This document shows, one piece after another, positions 2,756 to 14,159 of a stretch of DNA of 64,000 bases. Position 1 is the first letter of the stretch, and every line of letters begins with the position of its first letter. The stretch is from Methylophilus sp. Leaf416 (GTDB lineage: Bacteria; Pseudomonadota; Gammaproteobacteria; Burkholderiales; Methylophilaceae). The stretch is taken from NCBI RefSeq assembly GCF_001424665.1, contig NZ_LMQS01000004.1, forward strand, positions 375,680 to 439,679, in the 5' to 3' direction. A program made the position numbers and the translations under genes. The notes under the pieces were generated by a model. It did not search any database and had not been told where the DNA came from. It saw nothing but the letters and a program-made list of their open reading frames with translations.

Positions 2756-4786
2756 ATGAAAAATATTCAACATCAGCATATTGAGAGCGATCAATACATC
2801 CAGACATTGATCGATAACTTCCCTTTCATGGTCTGGCTCAAGGATGAGAACAGCCGCATCCTGGTGGCGAACACTGCCTATGCCAACATGGTAGGTGTAA
2901 CCTCAAGCGCTGAGTTGATCGGCAAGACGGATTTTGATTTTTTCCCGCCTGAGCTGGCGCAGGAATATGTCGATGGTGATCACTGGGCCATGCGCAGCAC
3001 CGCACCGAGTGCAGTGACGGTGCCGATCAAAAATTCCGAAGGTGAGTATTACTGGATAGAGTCTTACAAATCTGCGGTGGTGGTCGATGGTAAAGTGGTC
3101 GGCTCTCTTGGTTACGCCAGGGATGTCACCGAGAATATCCAGAAAGAGCACGAATACAAATCCATTGTAGAAAACTCATCCAATTGCATTGCCAAATACA
3201 ACAGCGATTGCCAGCGCATCTTTCTCAATAACGCCAACTCCGCATTTTATGAAGTCGATTGCGCCAGCCTGATCGGCAAAACCCCCTCGCAATATCCCGG
3301 TGGCGACTTCGCCACCGCCTTTGAGCAAAGTATCCGCGAAGTGTTTCAAAGCGGTGAAGACCAGCATGTTGCCTTCAGGCTGATCACCAGCAATGGCAAA
3401 CATAAAATCATGGATACGGTATTAACCCCCGAATTCAATGCCAACCAGGAAGTGAAAGCCGTGATCGCCATCGGGCAGGACATGACGCAGTCGTATGAAA
3501 ACCTCGACCGCATCCATCACCTGGCTTATTTTGATTCCATCACCAAACTGCCCAACCGCATTGCCTTGCTCGAAGTATTGAATCAATGCCTCAATCAATC
3601 GCCGTCAGAAGCTTCGTTTGCGTTTCTGATGCTGGACCTGGATGGCTTCAAGGCGGTGAATGATCTGCTCGGCCACGCCGAGGGTGATTTGCTGTTATAC
3701 GAGATGGCCAGGCGTATCGAACGCGCCGTGCGCCCGACTGACACTGTTGCTCGGCTGGGCGGCGACGAGTTTGCGATTTTGCTTTCTCAAGTGAAAGACC
3801 CGAAAAATGCCGGCATGGTTGCGAAAAAGATTCTTGAATCCATCAAACAGCCTATCCTTATCCGCGGCACAGAACTGTTTATTTCCGCCAGCATAGGCAT
3901 TGTCGTGTGCCCCGAGCACAGCAACGTGGTCAGCGATATCGTCAAATTCTCCGATATCGCCATGTACAAGGCCAAAAAGCACGGCAGAAACAACTACCAG
4001 TTTTATTCGTCTGATCTATCGCAAACCACGATTGAGCGCATAGACATCGAGCGCTCATTACGCACCGCCCTGCAAAACGATGAATTCCTGCTGCACTACC
4101 AGCCACAGGTGAATTTGGAGACCAACAAAATCGTAGGTGTAGAAGCCCTATTAAGATGGCACCGTAACCACAGCGAAATGATCCCGCCAAACCGGTTTAT
4201 CGGCATCGCCGAAGATTCAGGCTTCATCATCGAGATCGGCGAGTGGATTATGCAAACCGCATTTAAAGATGCCGTCAGGTGGAACACCGGCCGCGAAGAG
4301 CCCATCACCGTCGCCATCAACTTATCCAGCCGCCAGTTTATCCATAACAATTTGCTCAACTCCATCAAGCACCTGTTAAAGAAAACCCATTGCAACCCGG
4401 CATGGATCACCCTGGAAATCACCGAAAGCCTGCTACTGAGTGACAGCGCATACATTAGAAAAACCCTGAAAATCCTGGATAGCATGGGCTTTAGAATCTC
4501 TCTGGATGACTTCGGCACCGGCTATTCAGCACTCAGTTATCTCAGTAAATTCCCCGTCAGCGAAATCAAAATCGATCAGTCATTTGTGCAAGGCATTGCA
4601 GATAACAACGACCACCGGCTGATTGTGCAGGCGATTATTTCAATGGCGAAAAGTTTGGGTAAAGAGTTGGTTGCTGAAGGGGTGGAGACTGCTGAACAAG
4701 CTAAATATTTAGAAAGCTGTGACTGCAAAGTGGTGCAAGGATATTTCTTCAGTAAGCCTAAGCCGTTTGATGAGATTGATATGTAA
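2756..4786 (+). CDS. PAS-PAS-GGDEF-EAL c-di-GMP cyclase/phosphodiesterase
   Basis: A 676-aa cytoplasmic sensor enzyme without predicted membrane segments. Two PAS domains (about 15-125 and 135-245, each followed by a PAC-like stretch) precede GGDEF (about 255-415) and EAL (about 430-676). The cyclase signature is intact (RLGGDEFAILLS), and an RxxD inhibitory site (RPTD) sits five residues before it, predicting product inhibition. The phosphodiesterase core also looks intact: GVEALLRW, NLSSRQF, LEITES, DDFGTGYSALSYL, and VAEGVET near the end. It may therefore make or break c-di-GMP depending on the PAS signal. No strong ribosome-binding site precedes the ATG. It stands alone, with a weak hairpin terminator downstream at 4952-4981. 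Confidence 0.9.
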   Translation: MKNIQHQHIESDQYIQTLIDNFPFMVWLKDENSRILVANTAYANMVGVTSSAELIGKTDFDFFPPELAQEYVDGDHWAMRSTAPSAVTVPIKNSEGEYYWIESYKSAVVVDGKVVGSLGYARDVTENIQKEHEYKSIVENSSNCIAKYNSDCQRIFLNNANSAFYEVDCASLIGKTPSQYPGGDFATAFEQSIREVFQSGEDQHVAFRLITSNGKHKIMDTVLTPEFNANQEVKAVIAIGQDMTQSYENLDRIHHLAYFDSITKLPNRIALLEVLNQCLNQSPSEASFAFLMLDLDGFKAVNDLLGHAEGDLLLYEMARRIERAVRPTDTVARLGGDEFAILLSQVKDPKNAGMVAKKILESIKQPILIRGTELFISASIGIVVCPEHSNVVSDIVKFSDIAMYKAKKHGRNNYQFYSSDLSQTTIERIDIERSLRTALQNDEFLLHYQPQVNLETNKIVGVEALLRWHRNHSEMIPPNRFIGIAEDSGFIIEIGEWIMQTAFKDAVRWNTGREEPITVAINLSSRQFIHNNLLNSIKHLLKKTHCNPAWITLEITESLLLSDSAYIRKTLKILDSMGFRISLDDFGTGYSALSYLSKFPVSEIKIDQSFVQGIADNNDHRLIVQAIISMAKSLGKELVAEGVETAEQAKYLESCDCKVVQGYFFSKPKPFDEIDM

Positions 4787-4951
4787 CTTCATTCGGCAAG
4801 GCTTTCTTGGTTAATAAATACTTAAGTAGTCACTTTCTAGCAAATAACTTAAGAAACTTATTATTAAACCGATAATCTTAATTGCAGATTATTGTTTTTT
4901 ACCTGTATAGTTCGGTTTGTTCCTTTGCCTAAGGCTTTGGTACGTGGCAGC

Positions 4952-4981
4952 GCCTCAGTCGCCATAAGACTGGGGCATTTT
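4952..4981 (+). terminator. weak terminator-like hairpin after the GGDEF-EAL gene
   Basis: GCCTCAGTC (4952-4960) pairs with GACTGGGGC (4968-4976), giving nine pairs with one G-T, followed by a four-base T run. It lies between two convergent genes. The opposite strand has no T run, so it best fits rightward transcription. The remaining roughly 200-bp gap shows nothing else. Confidence 0.45.
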
Positions 4982-4986
4982 CATAT

Positions 4987-5502
4987 CTAGCGCTTTGGTT
5001 TTCTTGTCTCGAGTAAAACGCTCGTTTGCTTCAGTCTCGTCAAATAATCTAAATCTGTAATCGCGTATGCTGTTATAAACTCAAATGGCTTTCCGTTTTT
5101 AACAGGGTCATTTAGTACGACTAGGTAGTTTTCTTCATTGACCAAAAAAGTACGTCTTTTCAACGTTTGGCCACGGTCACTTTGTCTACTCGATCCATAC
5201 CTGAAAATAGTGCCCGCAGTTGCATCTAAAACTTGTTCAATCCATAGCATACGTTTTGCACGCTCTATTGAAAAATGCTCATGGTCCAAACCTTGGCGAT
5301 AGTTTTGCGTATCAGTAAAAGCATGATCAAAACGAAAGCTTGAGAACTTAATCTGAGCCCCTGTCCAGTCTGTCCATATTCTTGGTTGCCCACTCGCATC
5401 TTTTACGTAGTGCGACAGATAGACTTCCCGATATCTTGCAACTAAGGCATCACCTTCAAGCCCTTCAAACTCAAGAAAAGGCCACAGAGGTTGGTAAACC
5501 AA
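4987..5502 (-). CDS. hypothetical protein, possible BECR-fold nuclease
   Basis: A 171-aa protein, last gene of the hsd operon, starting 3 bp after the DUF3800 gene ends. I do not recognise it with certainty. Its second half contains an FSIERAKRMLWIEQVL stretch, then RRTFLVN, YLVVLND and FEFITAYAIT. This order (His-containing helix with 'RA..I.WI..L', then a beta-rich end with a 'TAY' strand) resembles the phage-type Barnase-EndoU-ColicinE5/D-RelE (PBECR) nuclease domains, which are often toxins or defence effectors. Candidate catalytic residues are His in DHEHF, the Arg pair in KRRTF, and Thr/Tyr in TAY. No signal peptide or membrane segment is seen. The nuclease assignment rests on remembered motif layout, not a search, and could be wrong. 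Transcription with a restriction system fits an anti-phage or guard role. Confidence 0.55.
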   Translation of the reverse strand: MVYQPLWPFLEFEGLEGDALVARYREVYLSHYVKDASGQPRIWTDWTGAQIKFSSFRFDHAFTDTQNYRQGLDHEHFSIERAKRMLWIEQVLDATAGTIFRYGSSRQSDRGQTLKRRTFLVNEENYLVVLNDPVKNGKPFEFITAYAITDLDYLTRLKQTSVLLETRKPKR

Positions 5503-5505
5503 GAT

Positions 5506-6207
5506 TTACCTCCCAATCCACTGAAAGATATTAAACTTCGGCTCCGCCTTTGCAGTTGAAAACCTCAAGTTGGCTTTCCCCAAACCTTCAGCCAACTGGT
5601 GGCAGAATTGTAATTTTGCCTCGCTGGTTTCCCGCTTATTCCACTGATAGCCAACGGCACCAATCAACAAATCTACCAATTGCGTTAATGGTTGCTCTTG
5701 AGAGTCCACTGGCTCCAGGCACTCAATACGCGCCCGTCCACTTAGCTTTCTTTTAAGCATTTCTCTTAAATTGGCAAAGCAGTTTCTATCCGAGTTTTGC
5801 TGCCAATCTAAATACAAGTAATAGACCTCTTGCGGCTCTAACCAATGTACAAGTAGTTGATAATAGAGCTTATAGAATCCCAGCTCCTTATCCCCCTCAT
5901 TAAACCTGTCGTGATCTAGCGTTGTTCTATCAATCACAATGCATCTAAAACTTAAATCTTGGCTATTGAGAAAATAATCAATCAATGCCAAATAAAATGC
6001 CAATTTATTGGGTGAAACCTTGCTCCAACCAAATTCACCTTGGGTTGCATATTGTTTTTTCAGAAGATGAATATCGTGAATAATTTCACGCTTTCTGTCC
6101 CGTGGACAGCACAAAGCACCAATCACCGCATATCTATCGGCTTTATCTGATGTATGTCTACTTTCATCACAATAGACGTTAAAAACACTTTGTTGCGCTG
6201 GTTCCAT
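5506..6207 (-). CDS. DUF3800 protein in hsd operon
   Basis: A 233-aa DUF3800-family protein. The N-terminal strand with YCDESRHT (acidic D14, E15) and the later acidic sites D134 (YLYLDWQQN) and D179 (QLVDLLIGAV) match the family layout, which is thought to be an RNase H-like fold with metal-binding carboxylates. Function is not established for the family; members are frequent on mobile elements and near defence genes, and a nuclease or nucleic-acid-processing role is an inference. It starts 9 bp after hsdS ends and is followed after 3 bp by the possible BECR nuclease, so all three are very likely co-transcribed. No signal peptide or membrane segment. Confidence 0.8.
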   Translation of the reverse strand: MEPAQQSVFNVYCDESRHTSDKADRYAVIGALCCPRDRKREIIHDIHLLKKQYATQGEFGWSKVSPNKLAFYLALIDYFLNSQDLSFRCIVIDRTTLDHDRFNEGDKELGFYKLYYQLLVHWLEPQEVYYLYLDWQQNSDRNCFANLREMLKRKLSGRARIECLEPVDSQEQPLTQLVDLLIGAVGYQWNKRETSEAKLQFCHQLAEGLGKANLRFSTAKAEPKFNIFQWIGR

Positions 6208-6216
6208 AAAACGCTC

Positions 6217-7998
6217 CTAAGCCACCGCCTGCGCCACAAAAGCATCTGCAATGACTTGTTTTTGCTGGTTGGCTTGTTGAATGCGGGTTTTGAGTTGGTC
6301 GCATAGTGCAATGAGGGCATCGACTTTGGCGACGATGCGGTGTTGTTCGGCTAATGGAGGTAAGCAAAAAATCATATTTGATACCTGTATCGTTGATATA
6401 TGGGGTACCCCATTACTTCTGCCAGGATCAATACTTTCCACAAAAAACTTTGATTTTAGCCATATAGCAAGATACTCAGTTATAACTGAATTTTGTAAAC
6501 TGGATATCCTTGCCACTCGCTGTAACAATAAGCAAGGTACATCTGCTTTTGAAATTACAGCGTACTTCAAACCTGTTGTAATAATTGGACGATCAAGACT
6601 TAGTACTATATCTCCGACTTCTAGGTTGTATTCTTTAAAATTCGCAGCACGTTCATCCGAAATTTTTACAACGTCATCCCAATTAGCTACTGAGTGAGAA
6701 ATATTTATATTTCGAAGTAGTCTTACTCCAGAAGCTTCAAACCACTCACTCTTAAAGGCATAGCCATTTAAAAATGATAAAACCTCAGCTTTTCGAACAA
6801 GCTCCCACGCTTTCGGCAATTCAAACGGTTTTTCATCCTCACCAATCGGCGCAAGCGGTTTTTCTTTTTTGAGTTTTCCTTCTGCAATTAATTTGGCTTT
6901 TTCGGCTTGGATGCGTTTGAGTAGTGCGCTGGCGGGTTCGTCGTTGGGGTCTTGCGGGACGAGTTTGCCCATGACGGCGAGTTGTAGCAGGGTTTGTTTG
7001 AGGGCGTCTATGCTGGCTTCGGTGGTTAAGAGCACATCAAAATGCGCGTAGATGCGTTGCCAGTTGGCGTTAAATTCTGCGGCGTTTTGGCTTTGGGTGA
7101 GCGTGGCAAGCAGTTGGCTCACCAAGATTTCATGCGCTTCTTGTGCGTTGCTGTATTGTTGCTCTAATTGGTCGCATAGTGCCATTAGTTCATCTACTTT
7201 GGCGACGATGCGATGTTGTTCGGCGAGTGGTGGAATTGGTAAATTTAGTAATATAAGTGAGCTTTTTTGAAGATTATTAATTCCAATACCCTTGCCGTAA
7301 CCAGCAACAACTTTTCTATAGTATGGAGTTTGAAAAAAATAACTAAAATAATTAAATAGCTCTATTGAATATGACCTAACCACGCCACAAAAGGCACCAA
7401 ATCCACCATCAAAATCAATTTGTGCTTGTGCCGCTTTACCAACAAGATCAGCGCTACCGCTCGACATTGCAATTACTATGTCGCCTTTTTTTATAAACTG
7501 ACTTTCACTTAAAAATTTTCTTGGAACATATACAGGCTTATCAAAATTCAAAATACGATCTATGTTGTTACCCCTTAATAAGGGCACATGCTCGTCGATT
7601 TGGTCGTCGCTTGCATCTGACCTCCCATAAGTAACACCGCGTATTACATCAGCCACCTCATTTAATTCTGTCCATTCCCATCCAATAGGCAATTCAAAAG
7701 GTTTTTCTTTCTCATTTCTCGTCGCAAAGGGCTTTTCTTTTTTGAGTTTTCCTTCTGCTATCAGTTTGGCTTTCTCGGCTTGGATGCGTTTAAGTAGTTC
7801 GCTGGCGGGTTCATCAGTGGGATATTGCGGCACCAATTTACCACGCACCGCCAACTCTAAAATTAACTCACGTAGTTTTTTTACACCATAGACACTGCCT
7901 GCATTGCCACTGGCTCTGCCACGGCCTGATTTTTTCTCAGTATCCGCCGCTGTCCAAATAGCCATATGTTGGGTGAGCAGGTTTGCAATATTTGCCAT
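6217..7998 (-). CDS. hsdS: type I restriction-modification specificity subunit S
   Basis: A 593-aa HsdS, the DNA-recognition subunit that directs both methylation by M2S and cleavage by R2M2S. Order: N-terminal extension (1-40), conserved segment with LRELILELAVRGKLVPQ, TRD1 (about 110-250), conserved PPLAEQHRIVAKVDELMALCDQLE, spacer, a second LLQLAVMGKLVPQ segment, TRD2 (about 400-540), and a second PPLAEQHRIVAKVDALIALCDQL. The two half-subunits are near-duplicates in their conserved parts, also at DNA level. TRD1 and TRD2 differ, so a bipartite asymmetric site is expected; the target cannot be read from sequence. It starts 2 bp after hsdM. The TRD regions look AT-richer than the conserved blocks, as is common for exchanged TRDs. 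Confidence 0.95.
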   Translation of the reverse strand: MANIANLLTQHMAIWTAADTEKKSGRGRASGNAGSVYGVKKLRELILELAVRGKLVPQYPTDEPASELLKRIQAEKAKLIAEGKLKKEKPFATRNEKEKPFELPIGWEWTELNEVADVIRGVTYGRSDASDDQIDEHVPLLRGNNIDRILNFDKPVYVPRKFLSESQFIKKGDIVIAMSSGSADLVGKAAQAQIDFDGGFGAFCGVVRSYSIELFNYFSYFFQTPYYRKVVAGYGKGIGINNLQKSSLILLNLPIPPLAEQHRIVAKVDELMALCDQLEQQYSNAQEAHEILVSQLLATLTQSQNAAEFNANWQRIYAHFDVLLTTEASIDALKQTLLQLAVMGKLVPQDPNDEPASALLKRIQAEKAKLIAEGKLKKEKPLAPIGEDEKPFELPKAWELVRKAEVLSFLNGYAFKSEWFEASGVRLLRNINISHSVANWDDVVKISDERAANFKEYNLEVGDIVLSLDRPIITTGLKYAVISKADVPCLLLQRVARISSLQNSVITEYLAIWLKSKFFVESIDPGRSNGVPHISTIQVSNMIFCLPPLAEQHRIVAKVDALIALCDQLKTRIQQANQQKQVIADAFVAQAVA

Positions 7999-8000
7999 GC

Positions 8001-9479
8001 TTAGTTGCCCTGTGTGCTTGAGGCTAAGGCTTCGCCCAAGATGGTTTTAAGCTGGTCACGCAAACTGGTTATATCTTGTTGCATGGTGTGGTATTGCGCT
8101 AACAGCACTTCAGGGTCGTGCGTGATTTGTTCGCCAACATGCGGGTTTTTACAATCGAGGTTGTAATTGCGGGCTTGAATATCGGCAAGACTGACTTTCC
8201 AAGCTTGTTCGTTTTCCTGTCTGGTGCTAAAGCTGTCCCTCTCATTGCCCCACCAGTTGGCGAGCGTTTCAAACTCTTCTACCTTCATGGGTTTGGTTTT
8301 ATTGTAGGCTTTAATCCCACTTGGAAGCTGTTGCTCGTAAAACCAGATGTGTTGCGTGGGGGTGCCTTTGGTAAAAAACAGCAGGTTGGTTTTAATGCTG
8401 GTGTAAGGTGCAAACACGCTATTAGGCAGGCGCACGATGGTGTGCAAGTTGCAATCTTGCAGCAGTTTTTCTTTGATGCGAGTTTTAATGCCTTCGCCAA
8501 ACAAAAAGCCATCTGGCAACACCAGTGCAGCACGGCCACCTGTTTTGAGCAGTTGCATAATCAGCACTAAAAACAAATCGGCGGTTTCGCGGGTTCTAAA
8601 GGTGGCGGGGAAGTTGGTTTCAATGCCGTCTTCTTCCATGCCGCCAAATGGTGGGTTGGTGATGACTACATTTACACGGTCTTTAGGCTCCCAGCTAATC
8701 AGTGGGCGCGCCAAGGTGTTGTCGTGGAGGATATTGCTGGGCACTTCGATGCCATGCAATATCATATTGGTGGTGCATAGCATGTGCGGCAGTGGCTTTT
8801 TCTCTATGCCGTGAATGCTGGCTTGCAGCTTGGCTTCGTCTTCCACCGTTTTCACATCTTTTTTACGAATATGCTCGATGGTGCAACTTAAAAAGCCGCC
8901 TGTGCCACATGCAGGGTCCATCACTTTTTCACCCAGACGTGGGTTAGCCATACGCACCATAAACTCAGTCACGGCGCGTGGCGTATAAAACTCACCTGCA
9001 TTGCCTGCCGCTTGCAAATCGCGCAGGAGTTGTTCGTACATATCACCAAACAAATGGCGCTCTTTTGCTTTGTTAAAATCCACGCCCTCCTGAATTTTAT
9101 TAATCACCTGGCGCAAGAGTTGGCCAGATTTCATGTAATTGTAGGCATCTTCAAACACTGACCGCATCACGTAAGCACTCTGATCGTTGCCTTTGGCTGT
9201 GAGATTTTGCAAAGCTGGGAATAGCTCGTTATCGACAAACTGTTTCAACGCATCGCCTGTTATGCCTTCGGGATTTGCTGCCCAGTTACGCCACCGGAAT
9301 TTCTCGGGCAATGGTGATTGATAATCATCATTTAAAAGCTCCCACGTGAGTTCACGGTCATCGAATATCTTTAAAAACAGCATCCAGACCAATTGGCCTA
9401 AACGTTGCGCGTCGCCATCGACGCCCACGTCTTTGCGCATGATGTCTTGAATGGATTTAATAGTGCTAGAAATGGACAT
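8001..9479 (-). CDS. hsdM: type I restriction-modification DNA methyltransferase subunit M
   Basis: A 492-aa N6-adenine methyltransferase. The N-terminal HsdM helical domain (about 1-135) is followed by the catalytic domain with SAM motif I DPACGTGGF (188-196) and catalytic motif IV NPPF (275-278). Both are intact, so an active modification enzyme is expected. With HsdS it methylates host sites; with HsdR it forms the restriction complex. It begins directly after the stop of the membrane-anchored protein gene (start 9479, stop 9480) and is followed by hsdS after 2 bp, which implies tight translational coupling. Confidence 0.96.
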   Translation of the reverse strand: MSISSTIKSIQDIMRKDVGVDGDAQRLGQLVWMLFLKIFDDRELTWELLNDDYQSPLPEKFRWRNWAANPEGITGDALKQFVDNELFPALQNLTAKGNDQSAYVMRSVFEDAYNYMKSGQLLRQVINKIQEGVDFNKAKERHLFGDMYEQLLRDLQAAGNAGEFYTPRAVTEFMVRMANPRLGEKVMDPACGTGGFLSCTIEHIRKKDVKTVEDEAKLQASIHGIEKKPLPHMLCTTNMILHGIEVPSNILHDNTLARPLISWEPKDRVNVVITNPPFGGMEEDGIETNFPATFRTRETADLFLVLIMQLLKTGGRAALVLPDGFLFGEGIKTRIKEKLLQDCNLHTIVRLPNSVFAPYTSIKTNLLFFTKGTPTQHIWFYEQQLPSGIKAYNKTKPMKVEEFETLANWWGNERDSFSTRQENEQAWKVSLADIQARNYNLDCKNPHVGEQITHDPEVLLAQYHTMQQDITSLRDQLKTILGEALASSTQGN

Positions 9480-10322
9480 TTAATTATTCCAACCCAACTT
9501 ATGCCCAATAAATGTTGATAGTAAAGAAAAGACTATGCCCGCTAGAGTGATCATAATTGTTAATTTTATATTTTGATTTTGATGCCGCTCAGCAATAAGT
9601 ACGCTCTCTTTAAAATGTAGAAGGCTTTGCATTGCCTCAAGTTGACGTAACAACTCATCATTTAATCTTGATATTTGCCACTGACCTTCAAATGCCTCCC
9701 AAAATGCTCTCAACTCCGCGTTTTCCAGTTTAATTGGGTATCTTGAATAATACTGTATGTTGAATTTAGCGGCGCTTTCACAAACATTTAGAATTCTGGT
9801 GTTATTCTCCTCACTTACTGAGCGAGCACTTTCGGATAGTTGATTCATCACCAGCTTATATGCATGTGCAAGACCACTAATTAACACCGCTCTTTCAAAT
9901 TGTCCTGGGGTTTCAGAGGCATAAATAAAACCTTTTCTCACGGTTGCTATATGCCCATTCGAAGACGTTTTAACAAAATCCTCTTTCGTTAGACTCTTAG
10001 TTTCCAACATTTCATTAGAGTATTGAACTATTTCATCCGACAGTTCTTTCTCATGGCAAAGAAACCCTTCACCGAGATTCCGAACCTTCGGCTTTTCATC
10101 AGAAAACTTCACTTGAATGATTTTTTTGTATGGCGAATCTATGAAGAAAACTAAGGTCCAATTTTTGTTTTTATCCTCATAGAACTTAAACGACTTTGCT
10201 AGTGACTCATCAAAAAATACAATTTTATTTCCACTAATTTTTAATTCTGTGTAACTTTGTTCTTTCAGGAGATATTCAGGATTGTATTGGTAATAAGCTA
10301 CTTTATTTTTAATTTCCGTCAC
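9480..10322 (-). CDS. unrecognised protein with C-terminal membrane anchor, between hsdR and hsdM
   Basis: A 280-aa protein I do not recognise. Residues 1-80 are rich in beta-type hydrophobic patterns (KIVFFDE, WTLVFFIDS, KIIQVKFSD), residues 90-245 look helical with a possible coiled coil near 205-245 (LNDELLRQLEAMQSLL), and residues 252-273 form one clear hydrophobic membrane segment followed by a short positive tail. There is no signal peptide, so a tail-anchored inner-membrane protein with a cytoplasmic body is predicted. It lies 9 bp after hsdR and abuts hsdM, placing it inside the restriction operon. Its base composition is visibly AT-richer than the flanking hsd genes. Possible roles are tethering the complex to the membrane, an independent defence effector, or cargo; none can be shown here. 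Confidence 0.75.
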   Translation of the reverse strand: MTEIKNKVAYYQYNPEYLLKEQSYTELKISGNKIVFFDESLAKSFKFYEDKNKNWTLVFFIDSPYKKIIQVKFSDEKPKVRNLGEGFLCHEKELSDEIVQYSNEMLETKSLTKEDFVKTSSNGHIATVRKGFIYASETPGQFERAVLISGLAHAYKLVMNQLSESARSVSEENNTRILNVCESAAKFNIQYYSRYPIKLENAELRAFWEAFEGQWQISRLNDELLRQLEAMQSLLHFKESVLIAERHQNQNIKLTIMITLAGIVFSLLSTFIGHKLGWNN

Positions 10323-10331
10323 TTCATTTTC

Positions 10332-12701
10332 CTACGCGTATAGTTGCTGCTCAAGTTCGATTACGGCATTGAGATAGCCTTGTTTACCACCAAAAGCTGA
10401 AATCAATTCCGGGGCGCTACCCATCGTTCTAAATGGATCAAGGGTCAGGATTTTAATATCTTCAATGTTCTCGACGCCAGTATCAGCGTATTTATCCAGC
10501 AAGGCTACTAATACTTGTCTGGCTTGCGCACCGTAGTTGGCAAAATAATTACGCTTTTTGACCTGCTCAGCCCGCTCTTTGCGAGTGAGTGGTGGCTGAT
10601 CAAAAGCGACATGGCATACCAAATCAAACGGGTCAAAATCTTTGCCAACTTCTTCGGCCAATGCATCGAGCAAAATGCCATGTGACTCAAATTCTTGAAT
10701 CAAAGCGGCTTTACGCTCAGCACTGCTCCATGTTTTTAAAAAGTCGTCCAAACTTTGATAATCTTTATGAACTTGATTTTTGGTGTAATCACGTATGGAT
10801 TCGGTGATTAACTTACCCTCTGGGCCGTAATACTGCACCCGTTGCGCAACCACGTGAACCGGCACATTATCGACAACATACTTCACACGCCCTTTTGATT
10901 CACCACCAACAGTAATATCCGGTTTTTCAGGATTGGGCAATGGTAAAGCTGGATCTTCAATTTCGTCCGGCGGCACTGGTAATTGCCCCCCATCAGGTTC
11001 AAAAATCACAACTGGCTCGCCATCAAAATTTTTATCCGCAAATAACTCGGTGGCTTTTTTGAAATCCATGATCGTGAACCAAAATTTGCCGTAGTCTTCA
11101 TTGATACGCGTACCACGACCAATAATCTGCTTGAACTCAGTCATGGATTTGATGTGCTGATCCAAAACTACCAATTTGCAGGTTTGTGCATCCACCCCTG
11201 TGGTCATGAGTTTGGAGGTGGTGGCAATGACAGGGTAACGCTCTTCTGGATTGATAAAGTTATCTAGCTCAGCCTTACCTTCGTTTTCATCCCCCGTAAT
11301 ACGCATGACGTATTTACGATTTTCTCTGACACGATCAGGATTTAAATTCACCAGCGCCTGGCGCATACGCTCGGCATGGTCAATGTCGTCACAAAAAACG
11401 ATGGTTTTCGCAAATGGATCTGTTTCAGTTAGAAACTCGGTAATTTTTTGCGCCACTAATTGAGTGCGCTTTTCTAGGACCAGTGTTTTATCCATATCAG
11501 ACTGATTGTAGATACGGTCTTCAATAACTTGGCCCCTTTTATCGATCTGTCCTGCAGTTGGACGCCATCCTTGAAGATCTTTATCTATGTCTATACGCAC
11601 AACTTTGTATGGCGCAAGAAACCCATCTTCGATACCTTGTTTTAGCGTGTAGCTATAAACAGGATCACCAAAATAGGTAATGCTCGAAACCTCTTTGGTT
11701 TCTTTGGGTGTGGCCGTGAGGCCAATGTGCGTAGCATTGCTGAAGTATGCCAATACATCACGCCATGCTGAATCCTCTGCCGCACTGCCTCGATGACACT
11801 CATCTATCACGATTAGATCAAAGAAGTCTGGACTGAATTGTTTGTAGATATTTTTGTCTTCTTCGTTACCTGTAACCGCTTGATAAAGTGAAAGATAAAT
11901 CTCATAGGCTTTATCAATTTGGCGTTTACTGATTTTGGTCATGGCGGGACCAAAGGGCTTGAAGTCATTGTTTTTAGTTTGATCGACCAGGATGTTACGG
12001 TCTGCTAAAAACAAAATGCGCTTTTTAGCACCAGATTTCCAAAGGCGCCAAATAATCTGAAAAGCAGTATACGTTTTGCCTGTACCAGTCGCCATGACTA
12101 GCAAAACACGTTGTTGCCCTTTGGCGACAGCCTCAATTGTCTTATTGATAGCATTTGCTTGATAGTAGCGTGGTGCTCGCCCTGTGCCATCATCGTAATA
12201 TGGCATCTCAACAGTAGCTTTAGCCTCTTCTGTGACAATGCCTTTCCAATCACAATAGCGTTGCCACAACTCCTCAGGATTGGGGAAGTTATCTAAAGCG
12301 AGTTCTAGCTCTACAGCATGACCATTTCCTGTTCGATCATGCATCAAAAATGCATCCCCATTGCTACTAAATACAAATGGGATTTCCAGGATTTCAGCAT
12401 AATTAAGCGCTTGTTGCATGCCAGCGCCTACGCTATACGAATTCTCTTTGGCTTCAATGATAGCAATAGGAATATTGCTTTTGTAATAGAGAATGTAATC
12501 AGCGCGTTTGCGTTCACCACGGCTATGCAGCTTGCCTCGCACAATAATTCGGCCATTGGTAAAGCTCACTTCTTCACGTACTTGCGTTTGGATATCCCAG
12601 CCAGCATTTTGAATCGCTGGAGTAATAAACTTGGTACAGATGTCGCGTTCGGACAGTTTCTGAGCCACCACATCCTCCCCTTGAATTAGTTTTTTTGACA
12701 T
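10332..12701 (-). CDS. hsdR: type I restriction enzyme subunit R (EcoEI/EcoAI-like)
   Basis: A 789-aa motor-nuclease subunit. The N-terminal PD-(D/E)XK nuclease shows D68 and E83-A-K85 ([10 protein letters not shown]). The SF2 translocase carries Walker A ATGTGKT (204-210), DECH (300-303) and TATPK (about 330-333), with a C-terminal helical region like that of EcoEI R; its length (about 790-810) also fits that type IB-like group. All key residues are present, so restriction should be active. The annotated ATG 12701 has no good ribosome-binding site, whereas a strong GGGGAGG lies just before GTG codons 11-12 (about 12671-12666), so the true start may be there. It is the first gene of a six-gene operon, with its promoter presumably in 12702-12752. 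Confidence 0.94.
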
Positions 12702-12714
12702 CGTAACAAAAATG

Positions 12715-12734
12715 AAAGCCCGCTGTCGGGCTTT
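12715..12734 (-). terminator. terminator after the thioesterase gene
   Basis: AAAGCCCG (12715-12722) pairs perfectly with CGGGCTTT (12727-12734) around a 4-base loop. On the minus strand the stem is followed by a T-rich stretch. It lies between the thioesterase gene and hsdR, separating the two leftward units; the hsd operon therefore probably has its own promoter. Confidence 0.75.
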
Positions 12735-12752
12735 TATTTGATGGCAATGCTT

Positions 12753-13199
12753 CTATTGGTATAGCACAAAGACACCTTGAAACTTAGATGTCGCTTTTGA
12801 TTCACTGATAATCTGCGCAGTGACTATAATTTTTGCCCTGCACTTTTCCTGATAAGTCCTTTCAAAACTCTCCCAATCATCCGCTGATTGAAAACTCGCC
12901 AAACATTCAAAATCGGTTTTCACCGGCAATAGATAATCAATCTCCTGGCGCTTGATCACCAGGTTACCTTTTAAGCCTGCTTGCTCAATTTTTGACTGCA
13001 CTAACGACCAGGCCGTGGTGATTGAAATAGCCGCAATGCTGCCGCCAAACACGATATCGAGATGGTTTTTGTTTAAGGCATAAGAGCCTTGCACGGTGAG
13101 TTGGTGATCTTCGATTCTTGCGATTTTTATCCCCAGGTTTTTGGTTTGCGGGATAAGCTTGAATAAGGTGTTTTCAAAGTTTTGTTCCAGTTGGCCCAT
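12753..13199 (-). CDS. YiiD C-terminal-type thioesterase domain protein
   Basis: A 148-aa single-domain protein resembling the hotdog-fold YiiD_C thioesterase family. The region FGGSIAAISITTAWSLV (about residues 51-67) matches the family's conserved 'FGGS' helix, and the rest follows the alternating strands of a hotdog fold (QEIDYLLPVKTDFEC, RAKIIVTAQI). Such enzymes probably hydrolyse acyl-CoA or acyl-ACP thioesters in the cytoplasm; the substrate here is unknown. It is downstream of the LysR gene on the same strand with a 27-bp gap, so they may be co-transcribed. Confidence 0.7.
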   Translation of the reverse strand: MGQLEQNFENTLFKLIPQTKNLGIKIARIEDHQLTVQGSYALNKNHLDIVFGGSIAAISITTAWSLVQSKIEQAGLKGNLVIKRQEIDYLLPVKTDFECLASFQSADDWESFERTYQEKCRAKIIVTAQIISESKATSKFQGVFVLYQ

Positions 13200-13226
13200 G
13201 GTGTTTCCTTTTCTAACTATTGTTAT

Positions 13227-14159
13227 TTAAATTTTTTCATTCAACTTTGGCTGGCTTTGCAGCAAACGGCATTCGGCAAATAACTCGGCGACCCATTCAA
13301 TAAATGTGCGCACTTTGGTTGAGAGGTGCCGGTTTTGCGGGTAGAGCGCATTCAGCGGCAGGCTGCCAGTGGGGTAATCACCCAGCACTCTCTCTAACTT
13401 ACCTTCATTTAAATAGCCTTGCACCATAAAAGTGGGTACCTGACATACCCCTATACCCGCCAGTGCGGCGGCGACGATCGCATCGCCATTGTTGATGGCG
13501 AGTTTGCGGTTGGTGGGGACTTCTTGCTCTTCGCCTGCGTGTTCAAGGATGAAATTGCGCACTTTGCCGGTTTTGGATGAAAAGAAGTGTACGGCCTGAT
13601 GGCGTTGCAGGTCGTCATGATGGGTGGGCCTGCCGTAGGTTTGCAGGTATTCCGGCGAGGCGACCAGCAGGAATTGCATGGTGCCTACCCGCCTGGCGAC
13701 CAGGGTGGAATCCAGCGGATGACCGACGCGGATCACGCAATCGACGCCTTCTTCCAGCAGGTCAATTGGCCTGTCGTCACACCCGATTTCGAGCTGGATT
13801 TCAGGGTAGCGTTTTAAAAAGTCTTGCAGCGCGGGGATGATTACCAGCCGGCCCAGCGGCGTCGGCACATCTACCCGCAGGCGGCCTTTGGGGTTGCTGG
13901 TGGCCTGGTGCAGGGCCGCTTCGGTTTCTTCCAGCTCGTTCAACAGCCTGATTGCCCGTTCGTAATAGGCAGCGCCATCGGTGGTGACGCTGATGCGGCG
14001 GGTGGTTCTGTGCAGCAGCTTGACCCGCAGGCGTTTTTCCAGCGCCAGCACTTGCGCGGAGACCGTGGTTTTGGGCAGGTTTAATGACATGGCGGCTTTG
14101 GTGAAGCTTTCCAGCTCCACTACCCGCGTGAATGCCAGCATGGTGTCGAATCTATCCAT
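13227..14159 (-). CDS. LysR-family transcriptional regulator
   Basis: A 310-aa LysR regulator. The N-terminal winged helix (FTRVVELESFTKAAMSLNLPKTTVSAQVLALEKRLRVKLLHRTTRRI) is followed by a periplasmic-binding-like effector domain (about 90-300). I chose ATG 14159 (MDRFDTMLAF) because LysR proteins of this CrgA/DsdC-like subgroup begin there; the upstream in-frame ATG at 14201 would add 14 atypical residues. It is divergent from the SDR-GST-hydrolase set across about 150 bp, the usual arrangement for a LysR protein controlling its neighbour. The effector is unknown; a xenobiotic or electrophile is an inference from the targets. Confidence 0.9.
   Translation of the reverse strand: MDRFDTMLAFTRVVELESFTKAAMSLNLPKTTVSAQVLALEKRLRVKLLHRTTRRISVTTDGAAYYERAIRLLNELEETEAALHQATSNPKGRLRVDVPTPLGRLVIIPALQDFLKRYPEIQLEIGCDDRPIDLLEEGVDCVIRVGHPLDSTLVARRVGTMQFLLVASPEYLQTYGRPTHHDDLQRHQAVHFFSSKTGKVRNFILEHAGEEQEVPTNRKLAINNGDAIVAAALAGIGVCQVPTFMVQGYLNEGKLERVLGDYPTGSLPLNALYPQNRHLSTKVRTFIEWVAELFAECRLLQSQPKLNEKI

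What the first reader, a model, noticed from the sequence alone, without database searches (positions are those of the whole stretch)
4987..12701. Expanded type I restriction operon with three non-canonical co-transcribed genes
The order is hsdR, 280-aa membrane-anchored protein, hsdM, hsdS, DUF3800, possible BECR nuclease, with gaps of 9, 0, 2, 9 and 3 bp. Classical type I loci need only R, M and S. Inference: the extra proteins may form a layered defence in which the accessory pair or membrane protein acts when restriction fails or is inhibited.
Basis: partly seen in the sequence, partly recalled or inferred. Interest (0 to 1): 0.75.

Follow-up and report, generated by a model that had tools for sequence, protein, structure and literature searches.

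The report
Restriction operon carrying extra nuclease genes
A bacterial DNA-cutting defence operon also carries a mobile pair of likely RNA-cutting genes, a pair also carried by phage P1, plus one rare membrane protein; such add-on genes are common in these operons, so this is an instructive but not exceptional example.

Summary
The six-gene operon is real, with the gaps stated. hsdR/M/S are an ordinary type I system with an EcoAI/FtnUII-family HsdR. The last two genes, DUF3800 and a 171-aa protein, are PADLOC's candidate pair PDC-M04A/B, the same pair as phage P1 rlfA-rlfB. The pair is a tight module: 38 of 46 loci found with a DUF3800 profile carry both genes side by side. Of these 38, 19 show type I genes nearby and in 14 the pair directly follows hsdS; the rest, many on viral contigs, show none. 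The DUF3800 model matches RNase HII/H2 structures and keeps four acidic residues; the 171-aa model has the layout and invariant His/Thr described for phage BECR RNases, but no fold search confirmed it. Most likely the pair is a second-line RNA-targeting defence module co-expressed with restriction; coupling to the RM complex is not shown. The 280-aa membrane protein was found in no other hsd locus, so the full six-gene order is not conserved. Other accessory genes fill the same slots in related operons, and the site is a defence hotspot in the genus. Verdict: observation correct, interpretation partly supported, new member of a known kind.

The parts
10332..12701 (-). hsdR, 789 aa, EcoAI/FtnUII family type I restriction subunit (translation start probably at the GTG at 12668)
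   Evidence: NF046051 1219.9 bits, cut-off 550; HSDR_N, ResIII, EcoEI_R_C; 11 of 14 other matches begin at residues 8-17
9480..10322 (-). 280-aa protein with one C-terminal hydrophobic segment; rare; function unknown
   Evidence: no family at E <= 0.1 in four libraries; KD19 2.24 from residue 254; partial relatives: Hydrogenophilus plasmid protein 31% over residues 121-235, E 9e-8, and a 143-aa orphan, E 5.7e-5
8001..9479 (-). hsdM, 492 aa, N6-adenine methyltransferase subunit
   Evidence: PF02384 7.1e-80, PF12161 2.5e-14
6217..7998 (-). hsdS, 593 aa, specificity subunit with two target-recognition stretches
   Evidence: PF01420, two stretches; PDLC03179 619 bits
5506..6207 (-). DUF3800 / PDC-M04A / RlfA-type protein, 233 aa, RNase HII-like predicted fold
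   Evidence: PF12686 1.7e-12; PDC-M04A 1.2e-75; AF2 pLDDT 90.2, first 16 PDB matches all RNase HII/H2, best E 2.9e-6
4987..5502 (-). PDC-M04B / RlfB-type protein, 171 aa, predicted PBECR-like RNase; TTG start with GGGAGG six bases upstream
   Evidence: PDC-M04B 7.1e-54; H60, R81, W87 in 36 of 36 and T or S at 144 in 36 of 36; AF2 pLDDT 86.2
4952..4976 (.). terminator-like hairpin after the last gene (listed on the + strand; palindromic)
   Evidence: 9 pairs, 6 GC; consensus match only
12715..12734 (-). terminator-like hairpin between the thioesterase gene and hsdR
   Evidence: 8 pairs, 5 GC, T-rich tail; consensus match only

Best explanation
This is an ordinary EcoAI-family type I restriction-modification operon that has taken up accessory defence genes. 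The last two genes are a mobile two-protein module, PDC-M04/RlfAB: an RNase HII-like DUF3800 protein and a small protein that is probably a metal-independent PBECR-type endoRNase. The module is co-expressed with the RM system and most likely works as a second layer that attacks RNA, or RNA in RNA:DNA hybrids, when a phage replicates despite restriction; this halts the infection, possibly at the cell's expense. Shown: the module and its linkage to hsd genes. Inferred from predicted structure and conservation: nuclease chemistry. Inferred from precedent only (PrrC): the RNA target, the trigger, and any restraint by the RM complex. The 280-aa gene between hsdR and hsdM is a separate, rare insertion, perhaps a membrane-acting effector (weak inference).
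For: Spacing. Pair = PDC-M04A/B; P1 RlfA/RlfB match the same models at 1e-95 and 1.3e-51. Pair adjacency in 38 of 46 DUF3800-profile loci, window included (36 by ORF, two more by six-frame search); 38 of 39 if loci under 230 bits are set aside. M04B-profile search: 3 of 369 class genomes hit, own included, all three beside DUF3800. 19 of 38 with hsd genes, 14 directly after hsdS, 8 of these with a 4-bp overlap. On the DUF3800 tree the RM label needs at least 8 changes, 5 forced by well-supported branches, so the association arose or was lost repeatedly. D14, E15, D134, D179 in 36 of 36 pair-linked DUF3800; RNase HII/H2 fill the first 16 PDB matches. Accessory genes in the slots of related operons: HipA_2 + DUF3037, Schlafen AlbA_2, HATPase_c, AAA_21, AAA_16, YhcG, Abi_C and Fic. 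Experimental precedents, read as passages: PrrC (PMC12707154; PMC3710099), TgvAB (PMC11411939), DarTG2 between hsdS and hsdR (PMC12255303).
Against: 19 of 38 pair loci show no hsd gene on the fetched stretch (some contigs are short), so RM is not required. Foldseek gave no PDB or viral match at E <= 0.001 for M04B, and its top PDB rows are unrelated proteins. The RNase HII matches of DUF3800 have TM-scores of only 0.35-0.52 and rmsd 5-12 A over gapped alignments, and profile-profile alignment with 23 RNase HII sequences found nothing. P1 rlfA/rlfB are annotated 'possibly associated with lytic replication' and scored non-essential, not as defence. Two of the 36 tree rows have identical DUF3800, so loci are not all independent. 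No phage, toxicity or expression data.
Confidence: 0.5

Rival explanations
1. Independent co-cargo: the pair is a complete defence system in its own right with its own trigger; the hsd operon merely supplies expression and mobility, with no layering logic.
For: 19 of 38 pair loci without hsd genes on the stretch seen, including P1 and other viral contigs; repeated gain/loss of the RM label; TgvAB inside a type I operon protects without HsdR activity (PMC11411939, passages), though the same passages report 10- to 100-fold less protection by tgvAB alone than by the whole cluster; unrelated genes occupy the same slots in kin operons.
Against: The position directly after hsdS recurs in 14 of 19 RM loci on several branches, more regular than random insertion would suggest, though expression alone could explain it.
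Confidence: 0.3
2. Toxin-antitoxin-like pair: the 171-aa BECR-type protein is the toxin and DUF3800 its restraint.
For: In the one M04B-profile search it never occurred without DUF3800 (3 of 3 matches), while distant DUF3800 homologues occur without it (L045-L048, L072, L074, L075); pairwise distances of the two proteins correlate, r = 0.92 over 36 loci (shared ancestry inflates this).
Against: DUF3800 keeps D14, E15, D134, D179 and K198 in 36 of 36 pair loci and its model matches RNase HII structures, which suggests an enzyme rather than an inhibitor.
Confidence: 0.12
3. Replication or RNA-processing helper of phages (RlfAB beside repL and the lytic origin in P1), later captured by RM loci for a non-defence role.
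For: In P1, rlfA follows repL, with a C1-repressor operator (Orlf) in front of it; an RNase HII-like fold suits RNA-primer or hybrid processing.
Against: Scored non-essential for P1 in a CRISPRi screen (PMC10695390, table passage); repeated presence in chromosomal and plasmid RM operons.
Confidence: 0.06

Closest known systems
PADLOC PDC-M04 (PDC-M04A + PDC-M04B), uncharacterised phage-defence candidate
   Same: both proteins match, adjacent and on the same strand
   Different: no functional study of it was found; the window pair sits in an EcoAI-family operon with a third extra gene
Phage P1 rlfA-rlfB
   Same: same two families at 1e-95 and 1.3e-51, same order, adjacent
   Different: in a phage next to repL, no hsd genes within the 5.7 kb seen
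EcoPrrI-PrrC (type IC RM with embedded anticodon nuclease)
   Same: nuclease-type accessory gene in a type I operon; layered logic
   Different: PrrC is ABC-ATPase + HEPN (PMC3710099, passage); neither domain was found here; restraint by RM is not shown here
TgvAB (Vibrio type I-embedded GmrSD-like pair) and DarTG2 embedded in an E. coli type I system
   Same: two accessory genes inside a type I operon (PMC11411939, PMC12255303, passages)
   Different: different protein families; the nature of DarTG2 as a DNA ADP-ribosylating toxin with antitoxin is recalled
RNase HII/H2 and RlfA/NamA-type RNase H-fold domains
   Same: predicted fold and acidic tetrad pattern; RlfA given as RNase H fold in a table of PMC3710099
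   Different: no sequence-profile similarity to RNase HII; substrate unknown

Membership tests
Type I restriction-modification operon, EcoAI/FtnUII family | HsdR of the EcoAI/FtnUII equivalog, with HsdM and a two-TRD HsdS in the operon | tested here: met
   NF046051 1219.9 bits over cut-off 550; N6_Mtase, HsdM_N, two Methylase_S stretches
Type I restriction-modification operon, EcoAI/FtnUII family | active methylation and restriction | not testable with these tools
   needs methylome data and plating tests
PDC-M04 (PADLOC candidate) | adjacent PDC-M04A and PDC-M04B genes, same strand | tested here: met
   1.2e-75 and 7.1e-54, 3-bp gap
PDC-M04 (PADLOC candidate) | anti-phage activity | not testable with these tools
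   listed only as a candidate; no paper with 'PDC-M04' in the held library
RNase H superfamily, RNase HII-like | RNase H fold | tested here: met
   predicted model only: AF2 pLDDT 90.2; first 16 PDB matches RNase HII/H2, 15 at E <= 0.001, TM 0.35-0.52, rmsd 5-12 A
RNase H superfamily, RNase HII-like | four acidic active-site residues | tested here: met
   D14, E15, D134, D179 in 36 of 36 pair-linked homologues; equivalence to the RNase HII tetrad judged from secondary structure with the motif recalled, not superposed
RNase H superfamily, RNase HII-like | detectable sequence-profile similarity to RNase HII | tested here: not met
   hhalign of A5 against 23 RNase HII sequences: probability 0.1%; both alignments are shallow
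PBECR / BECR endoRNase | N-terminal helix with His, then four or five strands with Thr/Ser in strand 4 (PMC5512222, passage) | tested here: met
   H60 in helix 55-61; strands 99-107, 114-122, 126-131, 140-147 with T144 in the fourth (two short strands 42-44 and 50-52 precede the helix and are not counted); H60 in 36 of 36, T in 34 and S in 2 of 36 at 144
PBECR / BECR endoRNase | structural or profile match to a known BECR protein | tested here: inconclusive
   no Pfam PBECR match at E <= 1; no PDB match at E <= 0.001 and unrelated top rows; viral library: no match at E <= 0.001, rank 10 a MuF C-terminal domain protein at E 0.08
PrrC-like RM-guard system | ABC-ATPase + HEPN nuclease | tested here: not met
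   no such domains in the accessory proteins
PrrC-like RM-guard system | nuclease held inactive by the RM complex and released by anti-restriction | not testable with these tools
   needs experiment

The most novel reading that the evidence does not exclude
DUF3800/RlfA and its partner form a two-part RNA or RNA:DNA-hybrid nuclease that hosts and phages share: type I operons repeatedly recruit it behind hsdS as a guard that fires when restriction is blocked, while P1-like phages carry the same weapon beside their replication origin to exclude rivals. In this lineage a third, membrane-acting effector (280 aa) has been added between hsdR and hsdM, giving a DNA, RNA and membrane three-tier operon.
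Probability: 0.12. Interest if true: 0.7.

Novelty: new member of a known kind. Interest (0 to 1): 0.42.

Why it matters
It ties an uncharacterised defence candidate, a neglected gene pair of the model phage P1 and the accessory slot of type I restriction operons to one testable module with specific predicted catalytic residues. P1 rlfAB in E. coli is an easy place to test it. Slots behind hsdS look like a general place to find second-line defence genes.

Tried and rejected
Rejected: a conserved six-gene operon. The 280-aa gene: 0 of 60 other relatives, 1 weak orphan among 398 other order genomes, 0 of 228 other class genomes with a three-sequence profile, none on viral contigs, one plasmid record with no hsd gene in the 11.4 kb seen. 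These genome samples overlap. Of 14 other EcoAI-family operons none has the 280-aa gene at the hsdR-hsdM junction; L097 and L102 end within hsdM, so the pair could be judged absent only in the other 12. 13 of the 14 have nothing between hsdR and hsdM; L102 has a 399-aa ORF there that looks Fic-like by its motif (motif recalled).

Led nowhere: Rfam around the operon, 0 matches (tried because PMC10910872 says DUF3800 is linked to ncRNAs). tblastn of P0001 in plasmids and phages, no match; profiles were needed. tblastn of P0002 hit 112 plasmid records (89 Escherichia, 12 Salmonella) and 18 phage records; I opened one of each (Phyllobacterium plasmid, P1), so the rest are not in the counts. Solved-structure sequence searches gave nothing meaningful. 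PBECR3 in relatives rang nowhere, not even in the 14 controls, so it is uninformative. PHROGs: an unnamed family for DUF3800, a weak 'replication protein' for two viral M04B.

Rows and counts: I dropped L049 (same contig as L005) and L069 (same DUF3800 and M04B scores and layout as L068). L066 and L068 have identical DUF3800 and both stayed. L037 was set to 'noRM' by hand because its only hsd-like hit is a 1354-aa methylase-like ORF. L067 and L070 (both RM) are not in the tree: their M04B was found only by six-frame search. L041 (contig start, partial DUF3800, beside HsdR) counts as lacking M04B. The DUF3800 profile was seeded with four pair members, so 38 of 46 is not an unbiased rate over all DUF3800. 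Hsd labels come from HMMs iterated from two seeds each on the same loci.
Full report
Observation. The six ORFs, order and gaps are as stated. The three core genes are a standard type I system whose HsdR is an EcoAI/FtnUII equivalog. G+C is 0.35-0.48 per gene against mostly 0.49-0.55 in the flanks, so the locus was probably acquired. The window's genome is probably of the family Methylophilaceae: same-family genome G923 holds a contig of the same length (15,568) and content as the named Methylophilaceae MAG contig of L005. One transcript is inferred from spacing; consensus scans for promoters and terminators are near or below chance and do not decide it.

The pair. The DUF3800 and 171-aa proteins match PADLOC PDC-M04A and PDC-M04B. 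Profile A2 found 19 of 398 phylum genomes and 4 of 187 family genomes, own genome included. The M04B profile PDLC04363 found 3 of 369 class genomes, own included, all beside DUF3800. Viral contigs gave 21 loci. One plasmid (Phyllobacterium, L053) and phage P1 (L052) were added. P1 RlfA and RlfB match PDC-M04A and B at 1e-95 and 1.3e-51. Over 46 loci, the window included and two copies dropped, 36 have M04B as an ORF directly downstream, and L067 and L070 have it by six-frame search: 38 of 46. The eight without are L041 (partial gene at a contig start), the four distant homologues L045-L048, and L072, L074, L075. In L072, L074 and L075 the residue at D134 is Ala, and one more of the loci without M04B has Arg there.

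Linkage to restriction. 19 of these 38 show hsd genes on the fetched stretch; in 14 the pair directly follows hsdS, with a 4-bp overlap in 8. Examples: window, L005, L007, L043, L050, L051, L053, L059, L064, L067. HsdR partners are of at least two kinds: the 789-aa EcoAI type here and 1,037-1,081 aa where whole elsewhere. On the DUF3800 tree (36 rows, 35 different) the RM label needs at least 8 changes, 5 of them forced by well-supported branches, against about 12 with shuffled labels. So the module moves between contexts, with some clustering. Short contigs may hide hsd genes in the 'no RM' rows.

What the proteins probably do. DUF3800: AF2 model pLDDT 90.2, pTM 0.89. The first 16 PDB matches are all RNase HII or RNase H2, 15 of them at E <= 0.001, best 2.9e-6, but with TM 0.35-0.52, rmsd 5-12 A and 8-14% identity. 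D14-E15 end the first strand, D134 ends strand 128-134, D179 lies in helix 173-189; all four are kept in 36 of 36 pair-linked homologues. This fits the RNase HII acidic pattern as I recall it; residues were not superposed, and profile alignment with 23 RNase HII sequences found nothing. Earlier work gave RlfA (a table entry in PMC3710099) and DUF3800 (PMC10910872) an RNase H fold; the RNase HII resemblance is the refinement here. M04B: model pLDDT 86.2; helix with invariant H60, then four strands with T144 in the fourth. [quoted passage not shown] Foldseek did not confirm it in either library.

The 280-aa protein. One hydrophobic C-terminal segment, G+C 0.353, no family. The part from about residue 121 to 235 has two distant relatives, a 176-aa plasmid protein and a 143-aa orphan, both with a hydrophobic C-terminal end by eye and neither near an hsd gene in the stretch seen (the second judged by reading the ORFs). 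It is a rare insertion, not part of the conserved association.

Slots and site. In the order, 15 of 200 genomes had an EcoAI-family HsdR, own included. Of the 14 others none has the 280-aa gene between hsdR and hsdM; of the 12 whose stretch runs past hsdS none has the pair. Ten of their extra genes, from seven operons, were scanned against Pfam: HATPase_c (just at its cut-off), AAA_16, HipA_2, DUF3037, YhcG/DUF1016 (two), AAA_21, Schlafen AlbA_2 (two), and one without a family. At the window's own chromosomal site, 10 other same-genus genomes (of 21 others searched) have a close relative of the flanking GGDEF/EAL gene; I fetched eight of these ten. Three hold other type I systems (L119, L121, L125), L118 an MmeI-like enzyme, L120 a Schlafen-type helicase, L122 an SNF2 helicase, L123 is nearly empty, L124 is cut by its contig end. 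In L119 the genes between HsdS and HsdR are Abi_C and Fic proteins; in L125 a Schlafen AlbA_2 protein lies there. So accessory genes in type I operons, and defence cargo at this site, are common.

Literature. Embedded accessory systems in type I operons are documented: PrrC (PMC12707154, PMC3710099), TgvAB (PMC11411939), DarTG2 (PMC12255303), all read as passages. Payne et al. [quoted passage not shown] it may already describe PDC-M04. The search 'DUF3800' gave 11 papers, of which I opened one (PMC10910872) and saw the rest as a listing; 'PDC-M04' gave none; 'rlfA/rlfB/phage P1' gave 5, of which I read passages of two (PMC3710099, PMC10695390). None of what I saw is a functional study of the pair. 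P1 rlfA and rlfB are scored non-essential in PMC10695390.

Conclusion. A correct observation of an expanded type I operon. The last two genes are a known candidate module with a good case for being two RNases; the layered-defence reading is plausible and has precedents but is untested; the membrane protein is an unexplained local insertion.

Noticed in passing
window 4786-13227: Defence hotspot: next to the GGDEF/EAL gene, same-genus genomes carry different cargo (three other type I systems, an MmeI-like enzyme, Schlafen and SNF2 helicase genes) or almost nothing.
   Followed up: partly
window 12539-12701; L123 about 10132-9975: G012 keeps a degenerate stretch similar to the first about 160 bp of this hsdR beside the thioesterase gene (part of an 855-bp alignment at 78%), at an otherwise nearly empty site: probably the scar of a lost EcoAI-type operon.
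   Followed up: partly
L005 2710-9069: The closest relative of the pair (86% and 72% identity) lies in a Methylophilaceae MAG next to Tn7-like transposition genes (TnsA, TnsB, TniB/TnsC and TniQ types by my reading of the sequences; no family search was run on them).
   Followed up: no
L032, L035, L036 upstream of DUF3800: Three pair loci without hsd genes have an upstream gene of 334-345 aa with weak double-zinc-ribbon matches below the Pfam cut-off, perhaps another partner of the pair.
   Followed up: no
L119 4561-6522, L121 4136-6330: Type I operons of the same genus carry an Abi_C protein (L119) or an unassigned 330-aa protein (L121), then a 362-aa ORF (Fic family in L119, not scanned in L121), between hsdS and hsdR.
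   Followed up: no
   Followed up: partly
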